From Lachnospiraceae bacterium (lineage in GTDB: Bacteria; Bacillota; Clostridia; Lachnospirales; Lachnospiraceae), in NCBI GenBank assembly GCA_017469275.1, contig JAFUGT010000130.1, forward strand, positions 1 to 41,371: DNA of 41,371 nucleotides, in the 5' to 3' direction. Shown here one piece after another: positions 1 through 15,063 of this stretch. The translations under genes were made by a program, and so were the position numbers. Positions within the stretch are counted from its first letter, which is position 1. Each line of letters opens with the position of its first letter. Under the pieces are notes generated by a model. That model saw nothing but the letters and a program-made list of their open reading frames with translations, was not told where the DNA came from and ran no database searches.

Positions 1-140
1 GCTTTGGATTAGTCTCAATGTTAGATTACTACACCGAAAGGTGTGTCACTTGTTAAGTTGATTGAACCGCCGTGTACGGAACCGTACGCACGGTGGTGTG
101 AGAGGTCGGGAGATTAATTAAATCTCCCTCCTACTCGATT
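1..140 (+). mobile_element. Group II intron, 3' end (domains V and VI)
   Basis: Positions 64-97 fold as a 34-nt domain V: the arms ACCGCCGTG and CACGGTGGT pair (one G-U), with a short tip and a two-base CG bulge. Positions 100-136 fold as a domain VI-like stem (GGGAGATT with AATCTCCC, closed by AGG with CCT), and the element ends with the familiar CCTACTCGAT 3' terminus. The intron body and any reverse-transcriptase gene lie left of the window, so only the last part is seen. The exact 3' splice site (about 139/140) and the structural class are not fixed. The downstream exon is non-coding and leads into the phosphonate operon. Confidence 0.8.
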
Positions 141-10223: not shown

Positions 10224-10254
10224 AAATGGCAGGGACTCATACCCCTGCCATTTT
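10224..10254 (+). terminator. Terminator after pseG, overlapping the 3' end of the opposite glycosyltransferase gene
   Basis: The arms AAATGGCAGGG (10224-10234) and CCCTGCCATTT (10243-10253) are perfectly complementary around an 8-base loop and end in a short T run. The minus-strand gene stops at 10237, inside the hairpin, so one structure probably serves both converging transcripts. Confidence 0.75.
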
Positions 10255-12597
10255 CAACATCTTCTGAAGTTTGATTTTGTAACTGTGTTCGTTCTTTACT
10301 TTTTCCTGTCCGTTTTTTGCAATCTCTATTCGTTCATCTTCATGCTCAAGATAATAAGCAATCTTATTAAGCAGATCTTCCTGACTTTCATACACTTCAA
10401 GGTCTTTACCGATTTCGAAGTATTCGGGTATTTCAGCCTGATAATTAGTCAGAAGAAATCCACCTGCCCCCATAGTGTCGAACATGCGAAGAGGCATACC
10501 TGTGCGGATTGGGCGGTTGGTCATGCTTAAGTTGATCTTGCTGCATTTGAATATCTTGGGCATCATGGTAACGGAGTCGGCACCACCTCTGAAATTAGCT
10601 TTCGGGAAGCGGGAAACATCACTTAATGTCCACAGATCCAGTTTGAAATGTTCTGATATATTCTTAAGCGTCATGAACCGTTCCTGTTCGGTACATTTGT
10701 ATCCGATGTATGTATCGGCAATTATCGCTCTGTCATCTTCGGTGTAGTCCTCGCCTAGAGGATACCAGCCGGCTTCTTTCTTGAACTGTTTTACAAAATC
10801 ATCTGTTAAGGCATCTTCCAAGAAATTATAGCCATATACGTTGAGCTGGGCGGCAATCAGACCGTCTACATAACCTTTAACAAATGGTGACAGGTCTTTG
10901 ACAATATCGTTATATTTGCATTTTTCCTCATAGGTCGATCCGATAAATGATATATCACAATCATAATTCTTATGGTCTTCCTCAGTAAGTTCAAATGAAT
11001 TCCAGGCTTCATAATCACAGGCCAAAGGCATATAATAAATGTTATCCGGATTCTTTGGAGCGAACTTGTTGTATTGGCTCTGATCGAACATGAATATTCT
11101 ATTAAATGGAAGCTCAATAGTGTTTGAAAATAATTCAAAATCAGGATTGTCAACGGTCCAGCTTACGTAAGGAATCTTGAAAACATTACAACATCTCGCG
11201 ATGATCGGAATGAAATTGACAGTGAAGACACAGTCGTATTTCTTTCCGGCATTAATGCTGTTTTCCAATTTGTCTGCTAAGGCAGTAAGATAATCCTGAT
11301 CATAGTCGTAGCTGGTGAATTCTTTGGTCATGTAATCCACATCATAATCAAGATATTTGAAGCCATTGGATATGCCATCCTCGCAGATTGAACCGCGTTT
11401 GCAGAATAAAATGTGGTATTTTTTATTGTCTGCAGCTTTTGAACTGTTATTGATCGGTTCATCAATTTGGCTGTTTCTTGTAGTATTAGAAAGGTTTGCT
11501 TCAGTGCAATTATCTTGAGGAATATAGGAATGTGAAACGTTGGACTGCTTTCCAAACTTTATAAGCAGTTCATCGCGGAAACTTTCCAACTGCTCTTTCG
11601 TAAGCCTGTAATCCACAAAATTCAACATAAGATTATCAAATGCATTGCTTTCCCAGAAACGGAACGGATTAGTCTTGTAATCAGGAACCTCATTTAATAT
11701 AGTCTCGCGCATCTCTATGAAATAGTCGTAAGAACGGTCAGGGAACTCCTGGAAGATCTCCCAGAGCATGTACACATAATATTTCTCAAGGAACATCCAC
11801 TCTATGCAGTCTTTGGTGGTTATGCTTGATAAGGTTTCCTCCTCAAACAATCTTCTCTCTTTGCAAGTCTCAAGGAAACCCAGTGCGATGGTCATCTTGT
11901 CAAGCTGATATTCCTGACTCTTTCTTTGCACTGTTCCTTCAGGATTGACAAAATAATGGTAAAGTGCTTCGTCTATTCTATAGTAGGATTTGGCATAGAG
12001 AAATGCCAGATAGCAGAAAAAGATATCTTCGTATCTTATCTGCTCCGGACAGAATATATCATTATCCTCAAGAAAGGATTTTTTGAATACTTTGCTCCAA
12101 AGAGCCGTGATACCTATCTGATCGCCGATGAATTTGGCACGTATCTCCGGTTTTGTGAGGTCAAGATAACCATTGTCGCCAAGTTTCTTAACGGGTGTGC
12201 GGTGCTTTTCGTCCCTTGCAAGATCCCAGCGGCACTCAACAAAATCGCAGTCGTATTTCTCAATGGCAGATATCATTTTCTCAAACATGGTGACATCAAT
12301 CCAGTCATCGGAATCCACATAACCTATATATGGCGCTGACGCATATTCCAAGGCTACGTTTCTCGCAGTGCCCTGGCGCCGGTTCTCGGTAAAGTTGATA
12401 ACGATTATATTGTCGGGATATTGTTCCTCGAGTGAGGTGAGTTTTGCAAGAGTGCCATCGGTTGAGGCATCATTTACAAATATGAGCTCTATATTCTCGA
12501 AACCTAATGTCTGATTCTTCAAACTGTTGAAGCATCGGTCCAGATATTGTTCTACATTGTAACACGGAAGTATAATGCTGATTTTTTTGTTGTTCAT
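10237..12597 (-). CDS. Two-domain glycosyltransferase: GT2 plus CgeB/DUF3880-type C-terminal domain
   Basis: This 786-aa protein begins with a GT-A family 2 domain (about 5-230): SIILPCYNVEQYLD, VNDASTDGT and the metal-binding DSDD at 95-98. After a helical region and an Asn/Ser-rich linker (about 346-392), a second domain (393-786) resembles the CgeB/DUF3880 plus glycosyl-transferases group 1 (GT-B-like) family: YVSWTVDNPDFELF, FMFDQSQYNKF, DISFIGSTYEEK, and the C-terminal MRMFDTMGAGGFLLTN with the YESQEDLLNKI tail. Such double enzymes are common in Lachnospiraceae near flagellar or surface-glycan genes. Acceptor and sugars are unknown; the nearby Pse pathway makes flagellin or surface glycan plausible. 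AAGGAGG precedes ATG 12597. I see no clear promoter for it. Confidence 0.85.
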   Translation of the reverse strand: MNNKKISIILPCYNVEQYLDRCFNSLKNQTLGFENIELIFVNDASTDGTLAKLTSLEEQYPDNIIVINFTENRRQGTARNVALEYASAPYIGYVDSDDWIDVTMFEKMISAIEKYDCDFVECRWDLARDEKHRTPVKKLGDNGYLDLTKPEIRAKFIGDQIGITALWSKVFKKSFLEDNDIFCPEQIRYEDIFFCYLAFLYAKSYYRIDEALYHYFVNPEGTVQRKSQEYQLDKMTIALGFLETCKERRLFEEETLSSITTKDCIEWMFLEKYYVYMLWEIFQEFPDRSYDYFIEMRETILNEVPDYKTNPFRFWESNAFDNLMLNFVDYRLTKEQLESFRDELLIKFGKQSNVSHSYIPQDNCTEANLSNTTRNSQIDEPINNSSKAADNKKYHILFCKRGSICEDGISNGFKYLDYDVDYMTKEFTSYDYDQDYLTALADKLENSINAGKKYDCVFTVNFIPIIARCCNVFKIPYVSWTVDNPDFELFSNTIELPFNRIFMFDQSQYNKFAPKNPDNIYYMPLACDYEAWNSFELTEEDHKNYDCDISFIGSTYEEKCKYNDIVKDLSPFVKGYVDGLIAAQLNVYGYNFLEDALTDDFVKQFKKEAGWYPLGEDYTEDDRAIIADTYIGYKCTEQERFMTLKNISEHFKLDLWTLSDVSRFPKANFRGGADSVTMMPKIFKCSKINLSMTNRPIRTGMPLRMFDTMGAGGFLLTNYQAEIPEYFEIGKDLEVYESQEDLLNKIAYYLEHEDERIEIAKNGQEKVKNEHSYKIKLQKMLKMAGV

Positions 12598-12621
12598 GAT
12601 ATCTGTCCCCCTCCTTACAAA

Positions 12622-12659
12622 TTGCCAATATTGACAATGGCATAACTGGCAGTTATAAT
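12622..12659 (+). promoter_or_regulatory. Consensus SigA promoter with two overlapping dyads, upstream of the 31-aa peptide gene
   Basis: TTGACA (12631-12636), a 17-bp spacer and TATAAT (12654-12659) form a perfect consensus promoter. The -35 is embedded in a 16-bp near-palindrome, TTGCCAATATTGACAA (12622-12637). The spacer and -10 overlap a second dyad, ATAACTG-G-CAGTTAT (12642-12656), with perfect 7-bp arms. The dyads look like operators that could restrain an otherwise very strong promoter, possibly acting also on the divergent glycosyltransferase gene. Confidence 0.75.
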
Positions 12660-12673
12660 ATATGTGTTGTCTT

Positions 12674-12690
12674 CTCCTTTAAGAAAGGAG
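12674..12690 (+). promoter_or_regulatory. Hairpin masking the ribosome binding site of the 31-aa peptide
   Basis: CTCCTTT (12674-12680), loop AAG, AAAGGAG (12684-12690) form a perfect 7-bp stem. The 3' arm is the Shine-Dalgarno sequence (AAAGGAGG, 12684-12691) of the ATG at 12698. The predicted transcript starts near 12666, so the hairpin is almost at the mRNA 5' end, as in several type I toxin mRNAs whose translation needs a conformational change or processing. Confidence 0.7.
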
Positions 12691-12697
12691 GTGAAAT

Positions 12698-12793
12698 ATG
12701 CCAATTGTAGTATCTTTTATAATCTCTGTTATGGCAGGTATGGTTTGCCACTATATTTGCAAGTGGCTAGATGGGGATGGCAAAGACAACTAG
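12698..12793 (+). CDS. 31-residue hydrophobic membrane peptide, putative type I toxin
   Basis: A 31-aa open frame (ATG 12698, TAG 12791) encodes a peptide with one membrane span (MPIVVSFIISVMAGMVCHYI) followed by a short charged tail (CKWLDGDGKDN). It has its own consensus promoter, a strong but hairpin-sequestered ribosome site, and a terminator about 60 bp after the stop. A second promoter points back at the mRNA 3' end from the opposite strand. Size, topology and layout are those of type I toxins (compare TxpA/RatA and BsrG/SR4 of Bacillus); toxicity is inferred. Alternatives are a regulatory or stress membrane micropeptide. I recall no characterised homologue. Confidence 0.7.
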   Translation: MPIVVSFIISVMAGMVCHYICKWLDGDGKDN

Positions 12794-12844
12794 CCCGAAC
12801 AGTTACTTCGCTGTGTGGCAAGTAGAATATTATACTGCCACAAA

Positions 12845-12954
12845 GAAGGAGAAACCCCGGAAGTCGGAAGCTTCTGGGGTTTCGTTTTGTGCAATATGCC
12901 TTGTAATATCTTTTTGCCTGTTCACACTATAACACATCCCCATCTGATATGCAA
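12845..12954 (-). ncRNA. Putative antisense RNA converging on the 31-aa peptide mRNA
   Basis: On the minus strand, TTGCAT (12949-12954), a 17-bp spacer and TATAGT (12926-12931) form a good SigA promoter. A transcript would start near 12919 and run toward the peptide gene; if it stops at the shared hairpin it is about 70 nt and overlaps the 3' untranslated end of the peptide mRNA. The RNA itself is inferred from the promoter and terminator only. Confidence 0.5.
12851..12890 (+). terminator. Probably bidirectional terminator of peptide mRNA and antisense RNA
   Basis: GAAACCCC-G-GAAG pairs with CTTC-T-GGGGTTTC (12851-12883, one G-U) around a 7-base loop. The plus-strand product runs into GTTTTGT. 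The minus-strand product runs into TTTCTCCTTCTTT, which is pyrimidine-rich though not a clean T run. Confidence 0.75.
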
Positions 12955-13060
12955 GCAAAACCTTATTGCCATCGGTATAAAAATGCTTACAAGCACAGTA
13001 TATCAGATAAATCCCAAAATTAAAAGACAAAATCGATATTTACAATGGAGAAGCCTGTCG

Positions 13061-13089
13061 TTGACACAATCTGGCGACTAATTTATAAT
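13061..13089 (+). promoter_or_regulatory. Consensus SigA promoter upstream of the MITE and lipoprotein gene
   Basis: TTGACA (13061-13066), 17 bp, TATAAT (13084-13089) is a perfect consensus. The MITE-like element begins 27 bp after the -10, so the promoter now drives the lipoprotein gene through a long structured leader of about 260 nt. Confidence 0.75.
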
Positions 13090-13105: not shown

Positions 13106-13337
13106 CTAAATCATAATAGGTAATTGCGAAACTCATTAATACAGTTGATTGCCTTGTGCATGTTGTACAGATTCCATACGCAGGTGCTTTGGAGCCGCCG
13201 GCACTTAACGAATGCGAAGCATGAGTTTAGTGCCGCTGCGTGCGACGAGCAGCGAGAGCGTGCCTGCAATGGAACTGTCAATATGCACAAAGGCAAAACA
13301 AAGAATAAGCGTTTCGCAATCACCTACTAAATCATAA
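13106..13337. mobile_element. MITE-like element (210 bp) with 16-bp inverted ends and 11-bp target duplication
   Basis: The element spans 13117-13326. Its ends, TAGGTAATTGCGAAAC (13117-13132) and GTTTCGCAATCACCTA (13311-13326), are inverted repeats with 15 of 16 matches. The direct repeat CTAAATCATAA flanks it exactly at 13106-13116 and 13327-13337, as expected of a target-site duplication. The interior continues to pair: TTGCCTTGTGCAT with ATGCACAAAGGCAA, CAGATTCCAT with ATGGAACTG, GCAGG with CCTGC, CCGGCACT with AGTGCCG. The whole element can therefore fold into one long rod. It has no coding capacity; the 68-70 codon frames on both strands follow from the palindrome. An 11-bp duplication recalls IS4/IS231-type transposases, but the source is unknown. 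Confidence 0.8.
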
Positions 13338-13359
13338 GAATGAAGGGAGAAAATTGATT

Positions 13360-15063
13360 ATGAGAAGATTAATTCGAACCGTGATGACATTATTGACGAT
13401 AATGCTTATGGCGGGATTTTGCCAGGGTTGCGGACAGACAGGTGGGAGACAGGAAGCGAAAGAGGATATTGATGTTACGGAAAATGCAGAGGAAACCAAA
13501 GAAGATGACCAAAGTGCCAAAGAAGCGGCCAGGGCATCTGATGAAGCTTCTCCTGCAGCCGATGAAGATAACGGACAGCAGGACGAGACTTCTTACAAAG
13601 GACCGCTTAAGTTGGTGATAGAGAACAAATCCCATGAAGAATATAAGGAACCGGATTCTTACAATGTTCTGATGTCAGGCAGTTATGCCAAGGCTTATCT
13701 TGCTGATGAGTGTAAGGTGGCATATCCCGAATTGGAAAAGTCCTTAGAGGCATTTAACAAGCAGCAGGAGGAAGAATATCTTAAGACATATGAAGAGTAT
13801 TTGAATGAGGCAAAGAGCTGGTATGAGGAGGCAGAGGATAAAGAAAGCTTTGCTCAGTATTCATTGGATAAAGAAATTGATATAACAAGAGCTGATGATG
13901 CCTTTTTGTGTATCAGGGTAAATGAGAGCGATTATATGGGAGGCGCCCATGGCTCCTACGGAAGCGGCGGCTATAATTTTGATTCGGTTTCCGGAAAAGA
14001 ACTTACTCTAAAAGATGTGATTCCGGATATTGAAGCTCTTCGGACTGTAGTTAAGGACAAGATCGTAGAGAAGTATTCAGACAGCATATTACTTGATTCC
14101 CTGGACGAGTCTATACCTGAATATCTCACAGGAGAAGCCAATCAGGGCTGTTCGTGGTTCATAACTCCCGATGGAGTTGACATTTACTTTGGCATTTACC
14201 AGCTTGGCGCTTATGCTTCCGGAACACAGACAGTAAGTATTACCTATGATGAACATCCGGAGTTGTTCTTTGACGGCTTTCGTAAGCAGGAGGACAATTA
14301 TGTGGAAAAGGTCAGTATCTGGGATACGATCACAACGGATATAAATGGTGACGGAACGAAGGATACGTTAATGATAGAACCGGAAACTGACGATTACGAT
14401 TGGGTAAACAGTTTATATATCACAGTTAACGGTGAGAAAAATACTATGGAGGTATATGGATACGATACAACTCCCTATCTTGTTCATGTAGGTGGCAAGA
14501 CATATATCTATGTTCATATGACTATGGAAAATGATTACAGTACCACCCGCGCATTTCGTGTAAATGGGAACAAGGTGGAAATGATCGGTGAGTATGGCGG
14601 ATACATAACAGGTGATCTTCCTGTGCCGGATTACGAATCTGATTGGATTACCACCTGGGAGGCACCATTTACATCTCCAAGCGATATATATATTGGCGAT
14701 ATTATTCAGATATTCTCGACTCATACGGGAATTGCAAAGGCTTATATAAATGATAATGGCGAACTTATAAAACCTGAGGATTACTACTATGCCATGAAGA
14801 GTGATGATTATAATATGACCTCTAAGAAGGATTTAACGGCAGATATGGTAGATAAGGAGAGTTTGGAAGTTGCATCAGAGAAAGTAACTGTTCCGGCGAA
14901 AACCAGGCTTTCGGTCTACGGTACCAAGGGAGAAGATATAGTTGATCTTATAGATGAAAAAGGTAATATATATAGATTTTCCATAAAGACGGGTGATTGG
15001 CCACAGACAATAGATGGTACGGATATCGAGGAATTATTTGACGGAATAATGTTTGCAGGTTAA
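13360..15063 (+). CDS. Lipoprotein with RsiV-like DUF3298 domain
   Basis: This 567-aa secreted lipoprotein has a basic start, hydrophobic core and cysteines at 21 and 24 (CQGC) as likely lipidation site. A long acidic linker (about 30-80, rich in E, D and A) follows. Residues about 85-305 resemble the DUF4163/DUF3298 pair of the anti-sigma factor RsiV, including ADDAFLCIRVN, MGGAHG and GKELTLKDVIPD. The C-terminal half contains DINGDGTKDTL, a calcium-loop-like segment, and is otherwise unrecognised. There is no membrane-spanning anti-sigma region and no adjacent sigma factor, so a sensory or cell-wall role is open. ATG 13360 is preferred (GGGAG about 11 bases upstream); TTG 13354 is the alternative. 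Expression should depend on the promoter at 13061 through the inserted element. Confidence 0.75.
   Translation: MRRLIRTVMTLLTIMLMAGFCQGCGQTGGRQEAKEDIDVTENAEETKEDDQSAKEAARASDEASPAADEDNGQQDETSYKGPLKLVIENKSHEEYKEPDSYNVLMSGSYAKAYLADECKVAYPELEKSLEAFNKQQEEEYLKTYEEYLNEAKSWYEEAEDKESFAQYSLDKEIDITRADDAFLCIRVNESDYMGGAHGSYGSGGYNFDSVSGKELTLKDVIPDIEALRTVVKDKIVEKYSDSILLDSLDESIPEYLTGEANQGCSWFITPDGVDIYFGIYQLGAYASGTQTVSITYDEHPELFFDGFRKQEDNYVEKVSIWDTITTDINGDGTKDTLMIEPETDDYDWVNSLYITVNGEKNTMEVYGYDTTPYLVHVGGKTYIYVHMTMENDYSTTRAFRVNGNKVEMIGEYGGYITGDLPVPDYESDWITTWEAPFTSPSDIYIGDIIQIFSTHTGIAKAYINDNGELIKPEDYYYAMKSDDYNMTSKKDLTADMVDKESLEVASEKVTVPAKTRLSVYGTKGEDIVDLIDEKGNIYRFSIKTGDWPQTIDGTDIEELFDGIMFAG

What the first reader, a model, noticed from the sequence alone, without database searches (positions are those of the whole stretch)
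12598..12960. Candidate new type I toxin-antitoxin locus encoding a 31-residue membrane peptide
Seen directly: a 31-codon frame for a one-span hydrophobic peptide with a charged tail, a perfect consensus promoter, a 7-bp hairpin that buries the whole ribosome binding site near the mRNA 5' end, a strong terminator, and a well-formed promoter on the opposite strand (TTGCAT-17-TATAGT) that fires back into the 3' untranslated region. Known type I toxins share exactly these parts. The peptide is shorter than the Bacillus toxins and I recognise no described family.
Basis: partly seen in the sequence, partly recalled or inferred. Interest (0 to 1): 0.75.

Follow-up and report, generated by a model that had tools for sequence, protein, structure and literature searches.

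The report
Fst-like toxin-antitoxin locus in gut Clostridia
This looks like a small bacterial self-poisoning switch (a short membrane peptide gene held silent by an antisense RNA) of a type already known from other Gram-positive bacteria, here in a poorly recognised branch that is common in Lachnospiraceae.

Summary
In detail: 31-codon ORF, 12/12 promoter, SD-burying hairpin, terminator and opposing promoter are at the stated coordinates. The start-codon region (12691-12718) is repeated beyond the terminator (12889-12914), so a convergent RNA would be antisense to the start site; the terminator reads both ways. Of 144 related loci, 122 match their own repeat better than any other locus's (0 of 10,000 permutations as good), the signal peaking at the start codon. 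That is the par(pAD1)/Fst layout. Codons are under purifying selection (pN/pS 0.24). The mRNA 5' end pairs with the ORF end (z 15.9). RNA I of relatives, including a paralog in this genome, matches Rfam RF02442 "SpF66 sRNA"; F66 (spd_sr109) is described as the toxin mRNA of a pneumococcal Fst-like system. Against: the window peptide and RNA miss the curated Fst and SpF66 models. So: type I toxin-antitoxin locus, very likely; new family, no. It is a divergent SXXXG-type Fst-like branch, found in 61 of 200 sampled Lachnospiraceae genomes. Transcription and toxicity are untested.

The parts
12631..12659 (+). RNA I (toxin mRNA) promoter, TTGACA-17-TATAAT
   Evidence: 12 of 12 consensus matches; in related loci the -10 is at least 5/6 in 131 of 144, but the -35 is at least 4/6 in only 62 of 144
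12666..12890 (+). predicted RNA I, about 225 nt (ends inferred from promoter and terminator)
   Evidence: z -5.28; ends are inference
12666..12673 (+). 5' arm of the 5'-end/ORF-end helix (GTTGTCTT)
   Evidence: mean pairing probability 0.98 over six of the pairs
12783..12790 (+). 3' arm of that helix (AAGACAAC), inside the last codons (Asp-Asn) of the ORF
12674..12690 (+). 7-bp hairpin sequestering the Shine-Dalgarno sequence (5'-SL equivalent)
12698..12793 (+). toxin-like ORF, 31 aa, one hydrophobic span, S10-VMA-G14 motif, W23, charged tail
   Evidence: purifying selection pN/pS 0.24 across relatives
12691..12718 (+). direct repeat copy 1, over the start codon (target of the antisense RNA)
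   Evidence: score 35, best of 144; 0 of 5000 shuffles reach it
12889..12914 (+). direct repeat copy 2; transcribed on the - strand it is antisense to copy 1
   Evidence: duplex -30.3 kcal/mol with own RNA I; -17.3 and -6.5 with the RNA I of the two paralogs
12851..12883 (.). intrinsic terminator usable in both directions
   Evidence: one search lists it on + (12851-12883) and on - (12875-12850)
12926..12954 (-). RNA II (antitoxin) promoter, TTGCAT-17-TATAGT, extended -10
   Evidence: read
12842..12919 (-). predicted RNA II (antitoxin), about 78 nt (ends inferred)
   Evidence: ends are inference

Best explanation
A chromosomal type I toxin-antitoxin locus of the par(pAD1)/Fst kind. RNA I is a stable mRNA for a 31-residue membrane peptide. 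At first it is untranslatable, because a hairpin hides its ribosome binding site and its 5' end is locked to the end of the ORF. RNA II is a short RNA from the convergent promoter. It meets RNA I at the shared terminator hairpin and at the direct repeat, covers the start codon and keeps the mRNA silent. If RNA II is lost (locus loss or reduced transcription), the longer-lived RNA I is translated and the peptide inserts into the membrane and stops growth. Shown here by sequence: the parts, their conservation, cognate repeat matching, coding selection, 5'-end/ORF-end pairing. Inferred from the Fst family: transcription, differential stability, toxicity, membrane action.
For: Cognate repeat best in 72 of 83 loci, 55 of 63 further loci and 122 of 144 combined, 0 of 10,000 permutations, peaking with the probe at -8 to +22 of the start codon. 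The start region is also repeated downstream in the 11 canonical Fst loci read out (scores 24-35; no permutation run there). pN/pS 0.24 against 0.68 and 1.03 in the other frames. In this genome's three paralogs each RNA I pairs best with its own repeat (-30.3, -38.3, -36.1 kcal/mol own; -6.5 to -22.0 others). Serine at W-13 in 116 of 143 and glycine at W-9 in 106 of 143 peptides, the positions of P and G in Fst. Megamonas homolog 29.2 bits against a 26-bit Fst cut-off. Of 67 RF02442 places in 200 family genomes, 64 contain a peptide hit.
Against: The window peptide itself hits no Fst, Ldr or C. difficile toxin model at E up to 10, and PF13955 passes its cut-off in 0 of 200 Lachnospiraceae genomes. 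Profile-profile comparison with canonical Fst is weak (E 0.0055, probability 6.6%). The window RNA reaches only 16.7 bits for RF02442 (cut-off 42). 22 of 144 loci fail the cognate test; paralog L003 was second-best. The window's antisense promoter is weak at -35 (3/6). No U-turn motif in the terminator loop (CGGAA; the review says not all homologs have it). No transcript or toxicity data.
Confidence: 0.9

Rival explanations
1. A type I locus of the TxpA/BsrG or C. difficile kind, in which the antitoxin works by 3'-end overlap and decay rather than by a start-site repeat.
For: Convergent RNAs with 3' overlap. 13 of 38 alignment members match NCBI's C. difficile type I toxin model weakly (best E 2.7e-4).
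Against: The repeat is tied to the start codon: 122 of 144 loci. The C. difficile model has a 60-bit cut-off and the one match whose bits were printed reached 15.3. The window peptide does not match it.
Confidence: 0.05
2. The window copy is a decaying remnant of such a locus and no longer works, while relatives do.
For: It scores far below RF02442's cut-off and lacks the local GGCAAC partner seen upstream of the SD in many relatives. Its repeat carries a 2-base gap and two mismatches.
Against: Perfect promoter, intact ORF, SD hairpin, 8-bp helix, terminator and a -30 kcal/mol repeat duplex are all kept. Window-against-relatives pN/pS is 0.21.
Confidence: 0.08
3. A small membrane protein that is not a toxin (for instance a regulatory or leader peptide) under antisense control.
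For: Toxicity was not tested; a hydrophobic span and charged tail are common to many small membrane proteins.
Against: Predicted stand-alone transcript with its own terminator, several copies in 28 of the 61 positive genomes, presence on small plasmids, and the anatomy of the Fst family throughout.
Confidence: 0.04

Closest known systems
par locus of Enterococcus faecalis pAD1 (Fst, RNA I/RNA II), as described in PMC7472228
   Same: Convergent promoters, shared bidirectional terminator, direct repeats over the start codon, SD-sequestering stem-loop, sequestered 5' end, RNA I of about 230 nt there and about 225 nt predicted here, peptide of 33 aa there and 31 aa here with a charged tail.
   Different: SXXXG in place of PXXXG; tryptophan present (valine in pAD1 Fst). 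One continuous repeat here where pAD1 has DRa and DRb. The 5' end pairs with the ORF end; whether pAD1's 5'-UH uses the same partner I could not verify (papers not held).
Pneumococcal Srf-27/spd_sr109 Fst-like system; toxin RNA F66/srn502, taken as the founder of Rfam RF02442 SpF66_sRNA (PMC9812572, PMC12323649, PMC3395615, passages seen)
   Same: RF02442 covers RNA I of paralog L003 over all 239 model positions at 45.3 bits. The model consensus carries an SD and a CAaAUGGCuaGA stretch aligned with the KWLD codons of L003.
   Different: The window copy itself scores 16.7 bits only. The equation F66 = srn502 = spd_sr109 rests on PMC12323649; that RF02442 derives from F66 is inferred from its name and length; I did not see the pneumococcal sequence.
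Lpt of Lactobacillus rhamnosus plasmids (PMC5608710, passages seen)
   Same: 29-aa toxin, convergent RNAs, 24-nt repeat over the start codon, UH and SL.
   Different: PXXXG-type by PMC7472228; plasmid-borne; not compared by sequence here (record not held).
C. difficile type I toxins (NF047374; PMC6563280, passages seen)
   Same: Convergent type I loci in Clostridia with small membrane toxins.
   Different: 34-59 aa toxins by that review; weak model matches only.

Membership tests
Fst/par type I toxin-antitoxin | convergent promoters on either side of the toxin ORF | tested here: met
   (sequence level only; the antisense -35 is 3/6; transcripts not tested)
Fst/par type I toxin-antitoxin | bidirectional intrinsic terminator shared by both RNAs | tested here: met
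   listed on both strands
Fst/par type I toxin-antitoxin | direct repeats giving antisense complementarity at the toxin's translation start | tested here: met
   canonical Fst loci read out
Fst/par type I toxin-antitoxin | stem-loop in RNA I sequestering the SD | tested here: met
   (predicted structure)
Fst/par type I toxin-antitoxin | upstream helix (5'-UH) sequestering the 5' end of RNA I | tested here: inconclusive
   The 5' end is predicted to pair with the ORF end; identity with pAD1's 5'-UH could not be checked
Fst/par type I toxin-antitoxin | tryptophan between the TM span and the charged C-terminus | tested here: met
   W23, invariant in the 38-sequence alignment; KD peak 2.19 over 19 residues
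Fst/par type I toxin-antitoxin | P/D/S/TXXXG motif in the TM span (given as an unpublished observation in PMC7472228) | tested here: met
   S10-V-M-A-G14; S at W-13 in 116 of 143, G at W-9 in 106 of 143 peptides; same register as P and G
Fst/par type I toxin-antitoxin | match to curated toxin models NF033608 / PF13955 | tested here: not met
   window peptide no hit; 6 of 38 and 1 of 38 alignment members at E up to 1; the Megamonas homolog passes the NF033608 cut-off
Rfam RF02442 SpF66_sRNA | gathering score 42 bits | tested here: not met
   window 16.7 bits; paralog L003 45.3 bits; 46 of 200 family genomes at E up to 0.01, 11 over the cut-off
Fst/par type I toxin-antitoxin | U-turn (YUNR) in the RNA I terminator loop | tested here: not met
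   loop CGGAA by the stem; the review says not all homologs have it, so not strictly defining
Fst/par type I toxin-antitoxin | toxic on over-expression, neutralised by RNA II | not testable with these tools
   needs growth assays
C. difficile type I toxins (NF047374) | match to the curated model (cut-off 60 bits) | tested here: not met
   window no hit; 13 of 38 alignment members weakly, best E 2.7e-4; 15.3 bits in the one printed

The most novel reading that the evidence does not exclude
Lachnospiraceae carry a large SXXXG branch of Fst-like systems, largely missed by the curated models, in which the mRNA 5' end is locked to the last codons of the ORF. The toxin's C-terminal Asp-Asn codons then double as an RNA helix arm. 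A competing local partner next to the SD in many members would make this a metastable, hok-like folding switch not yet described for Fst systems.
Probability: 0.3. Interest if true: 0.5.

Novelty: new member of a known kind. Interest (0 to 1): 0.36.

Why it matters
It places a par/Fst-type toxin-antitoxin system in 61 of 200 sampled Lachnospiraceae genomes, 28 of them with two or more copies, where PF13955 passes its cut-off in none. It gives a sequence test (cognate start-site repeat) that can find and pair such loci without annotation. It also suggests that Rfam RF02442, listed as a Streptococcus sRNA, is really a toxin mRNA family.

Tried and rejected
Pfam, NCBIfam and PHROGs gave nothing over cut-off for the window peptide, and PADLOC nothing for it; PADLOC also matched none of the 38 alignment members. 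XapX, DUF2158, holin and PspB hits were sub-threshold and dropped. Rfam at gathering score gave only a group II intron domain elsewhere in the window. PF13955 over 200 family genomes gave 35 genomes at E up to 1, none over cut-off, and it also rang in 7 of 14 control genomes, so these hits look like noise. Solved-structure search with the alignment found two irrelevant sequences at E near 1. DNA similarity of the whole locus against plasmids: none. No structure was predicted: a lone 31-residue helix would not discriminate.

Phylum-wide the picture is thinner: in 299 genomes the alignment profile matches 9 (E up to 0.001) and NF033608 matches 4 (E up to 0.01, one over cut-off). Of 523 plasmid records with any match at E up to 10, the Enterococcus ones among the 20 shown have E of 1 to 2 and I did not rely on them.

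Rows dropped before counts. Of 111 peptide places, 92 were held as loci; the 19 weakest were not fetched. With L004 and two plasmid loci this makes L001-L095. Of these 95, 8 had no recognisable start, L004 is a different protein, and L018, L033 and L077 failed the ORF-length filter, leaving 83; tighter length and flank filters left 81 for the combined test. The genome-contig scan kept the best 80 of 263 confirmed stretches; 73 were usable and 10 near-duplicates were removed, leaving 63. Residue counts at W-13 and W-9 cover 143 of 144 peptides. pN/pS uses pairs 70-98% identical in the core. In one search, RF02442 covered the RNA of 11 of 16 loci given (2 over cut-off) and touched a twelfth partially; L008, L021, L108 and L109 gave none at E up to 1. 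The three RF02442 places without a peptide hit are G105:C95, G196:C38 and G002:C25. Of 12 canonical Fst loci given to the script, 11 were recognised.

The local 5'-end partner next to the SD was tested too: its cognate excess is small (14.25 against 13.48, sd 0.20) though no permutation reached it. The 5'-end/ORF-end helix is short or absent in the canonical Fst loci read. Whether it equals pAD1's 5'-UH stays open.

Statements that something was not found in print rest only. One search searched five peptide strings in full text and found 0 papers. The Fst-like sequences of C. bolteae and C. asparagiforme reported in an earlier survey (told in PMC6563280) may belong to this branch; that survey was not held when I asked by a recalled DOI.

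Full report
What is there. The intergenic region between a glycosyltransferase gene (10237-12597, -) and a PdaC-like gene (13354-15063, +) holds a 31-codon ORF at 12698-12793. A 12/12 sigma-70 promoter lies at 12631-12659 and a 14-pair terminator at 12851-12883 that reads as a terminator on both strands. A 7-bp hairpin hides the Shine-Dalgarno sequence. On the opposite strand TTGCAT-17-TATAGT (12954-12926) points leftwards; it is a modest promoter (3/6 and 5/6 with an extended TG), not listed by the scanner. The window also holds SpoIIE-like and FtsH-like genes and looks chromosomal (inference).

The missed feature. The + strand at 12889-12914, just beyond the terminator, repeats the start-codon region 12691-12718 with two mismatches and a 2-base gap. 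An RNA from the reverse promoter would therefore be antisense to the toxin's translation start. The score (35) is not reached in 5000 shuffles (highest 26), and no other of 144 loci matches the window's start region or its repeat as well.

Is it conserved? The peptide is found in 61 of 200 sampled genomes of the family at E up to 0.01, with two or more places in 28 of them, and three times in this genome. It also occurs on small plasmids: the seven best-ranked records have E between 2e-4 and 3e-2, none with an annotated gene at the match (the plasmid gene table is incomplete). In 83 usable loci from these searches 72 match their own downstream repeat best; in 63 further, non-duplicate loci from named genomes 55 do; combined 122 of 144, mean 32.6 against 15.7 for non-cognate pairs, 0 of 10,000 permutations as high. 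With 30-base probes the signal peaks at -8 to +22 of the start codon (z 66.6), is still strong one step away on either side, and is near zero at -60, -45, +20 and +50 (0.8, 0.3, 0.9, -1.0; 2.1 at +35). Twenty-two loci fail; I did not examine them one by one, and some probably have wrongly chosen starts. Core codons show pN/pS 0.24 over 5833 pairs, against 0.68 and 1.03 in the shifted frames, so the frame is under selection as protein.

The 5' end. The RNA I fold pairs the first eight bases (12666-12673) with 12783-12790, the last codons of the ORF. Across 144 loci the complementarity between the transcript's predicted 5' end and its own RNA exceeds permuted pairs clearly only around the stop codon (z 8.7, 15.9 and 6.1 for windows starting 24 before, 12 before and at the ORF end; between -2.2 and 1.5 upstream, between -1.4 and 2.9 downstream). 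A perfect helix of 6 bp or more exists in 105 of 144 loci, against 24.6% of non-cognate pairs and 15.7% with shuffled ORF ends. It is kept through many different arm sequences and lies either within the ORF (56) or from the stop codon on (48). Where tails are longer, as in the two paralogs, the GACAAC/T arm stays inside the ORF. This may correspond to the upstream helix of pAD1, but I could not verify that helix's partner. In canonical Fst loci of one distant family of the phylum it is short or absent.

How it works (inferred from the family). RNA I accumulates but is closed at its 5' end and SD. RNA II pairs at the terminator loop and at the repeat and blocks the start site. Loss of RNA II frees a stable toxin mRNA. 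The review PMC7472228 (abstract, passages, sections 4 and 12 seen) gives these elements for par(pAD1) and says they are highly conserved in Firmicutes homologs. The three paralogs in this genome have distinct repeats; each RNA I pairs best with its own RNA II (-30.3, -38.3, -36.1 kcal/mol against -6.5 to -22.0), so cross-talk should be limited.

Which family? Structure of the locus: Fst/par. Peptide: W23 between span and tail and S10-XXX-G14, the SXXXG version of the P/D/S/TXXXG motif. hhalign against nine canonical Fst peptides puts S on P, G on G and W on W without gaps, though with weak statistics (E 0.0055, probability 6.6%). Curated models: none for the window peptide; 6 of 38 alignment members match NF033608 at E up to 1, and the Megamonas plasmid homolog passes it and is so annotated. 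One locus (G291:C9) is hit both by NF033608 (E 0.008) and by the profile of this branch. RNA: RF02442 'Streptococcus sRNA SpF66' matches RNA I of a paralog in this genome over its full length at 45.3 bits and 67 places in 46 of 200 family genomes, 64 of them containing a peptide hit; the window copy itself reaches 16.7 bits only. F66 was listed as a pneumococcal sRNA of 239 nt (PMC3395615, passages), the length of the RF02442 model. PMC12323649 (passages) lists F66 with srn502 and Spd_sr109, and PMC9812572 (passages) describes Srf-27/spd_sr109 as a par-homologous type I system with both RNAs followed by Northern blot. So a relative of this locus is already recognised as an Fst-like system.

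Prior knowledge of Clostridia. PMC7472228 names commensal Clostridia among the hosts of the Fst subfamily. [quoted passage not shown] bolteae and an Fst-like one in C. asparagiforme. I recall, from no call, that both are now placed in Lachnospiraceae. The family was thus glimpsed there before; its breadth in Lachnospiraceae and its repeat-based pairing I did not find described.

Verdict. Observation confirmed; type I toxin-antitoxin reading supported; 'new family' not supported. A divergent Fst-like member, with an unusually clear 5'-end/ORF-end helix as the part most worth following.

Noticed in passing
window 13117-13326: 210-bp MITE-like element: terminal inverted repeats TAGGTAATTGCGAAAC/GTTTCGCAATCACCTA flanked by an 11-bp direct repeat CTAAATCATAA (13106-13116, 13327-13337), read. 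A 251-base probe over it gives 47 matches in this genome, many partial.
   Followed up: partly
window 13061-13089: A second perfect TTGACA-17-TATAAT promoter, just upstream of the MITE-like element and about 265 bases before the PdaC-like ORF.
   Followed up: no
window 65-139: Group II intron catalytic domain match, RF00029, 48.7 bits.
   Followed up: no
Rfam RF02442; L003 1405-1623, L202 373-569: The Rfam family 'Streptococcus sRNA SpF66' appears to be a toxin mRNA family: in 200 Lachnospiraceae genomes 64 of its 67 places contain a hit of the KWLD-type peptide.
   Followed up: partly
G394:C23 95580-96849 and G470:C10 95539-96097: Clusters: four peptide-profile matches within 1.3 kb in one genome, and one match about 420 bases from a canonical Fst gene in another.
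   Followed up: no
L005 (Megamonas funiformis plasmid): The Fst-annotated homolog lies about 280 bases from a HipA-domain gene.
   Followed up: no
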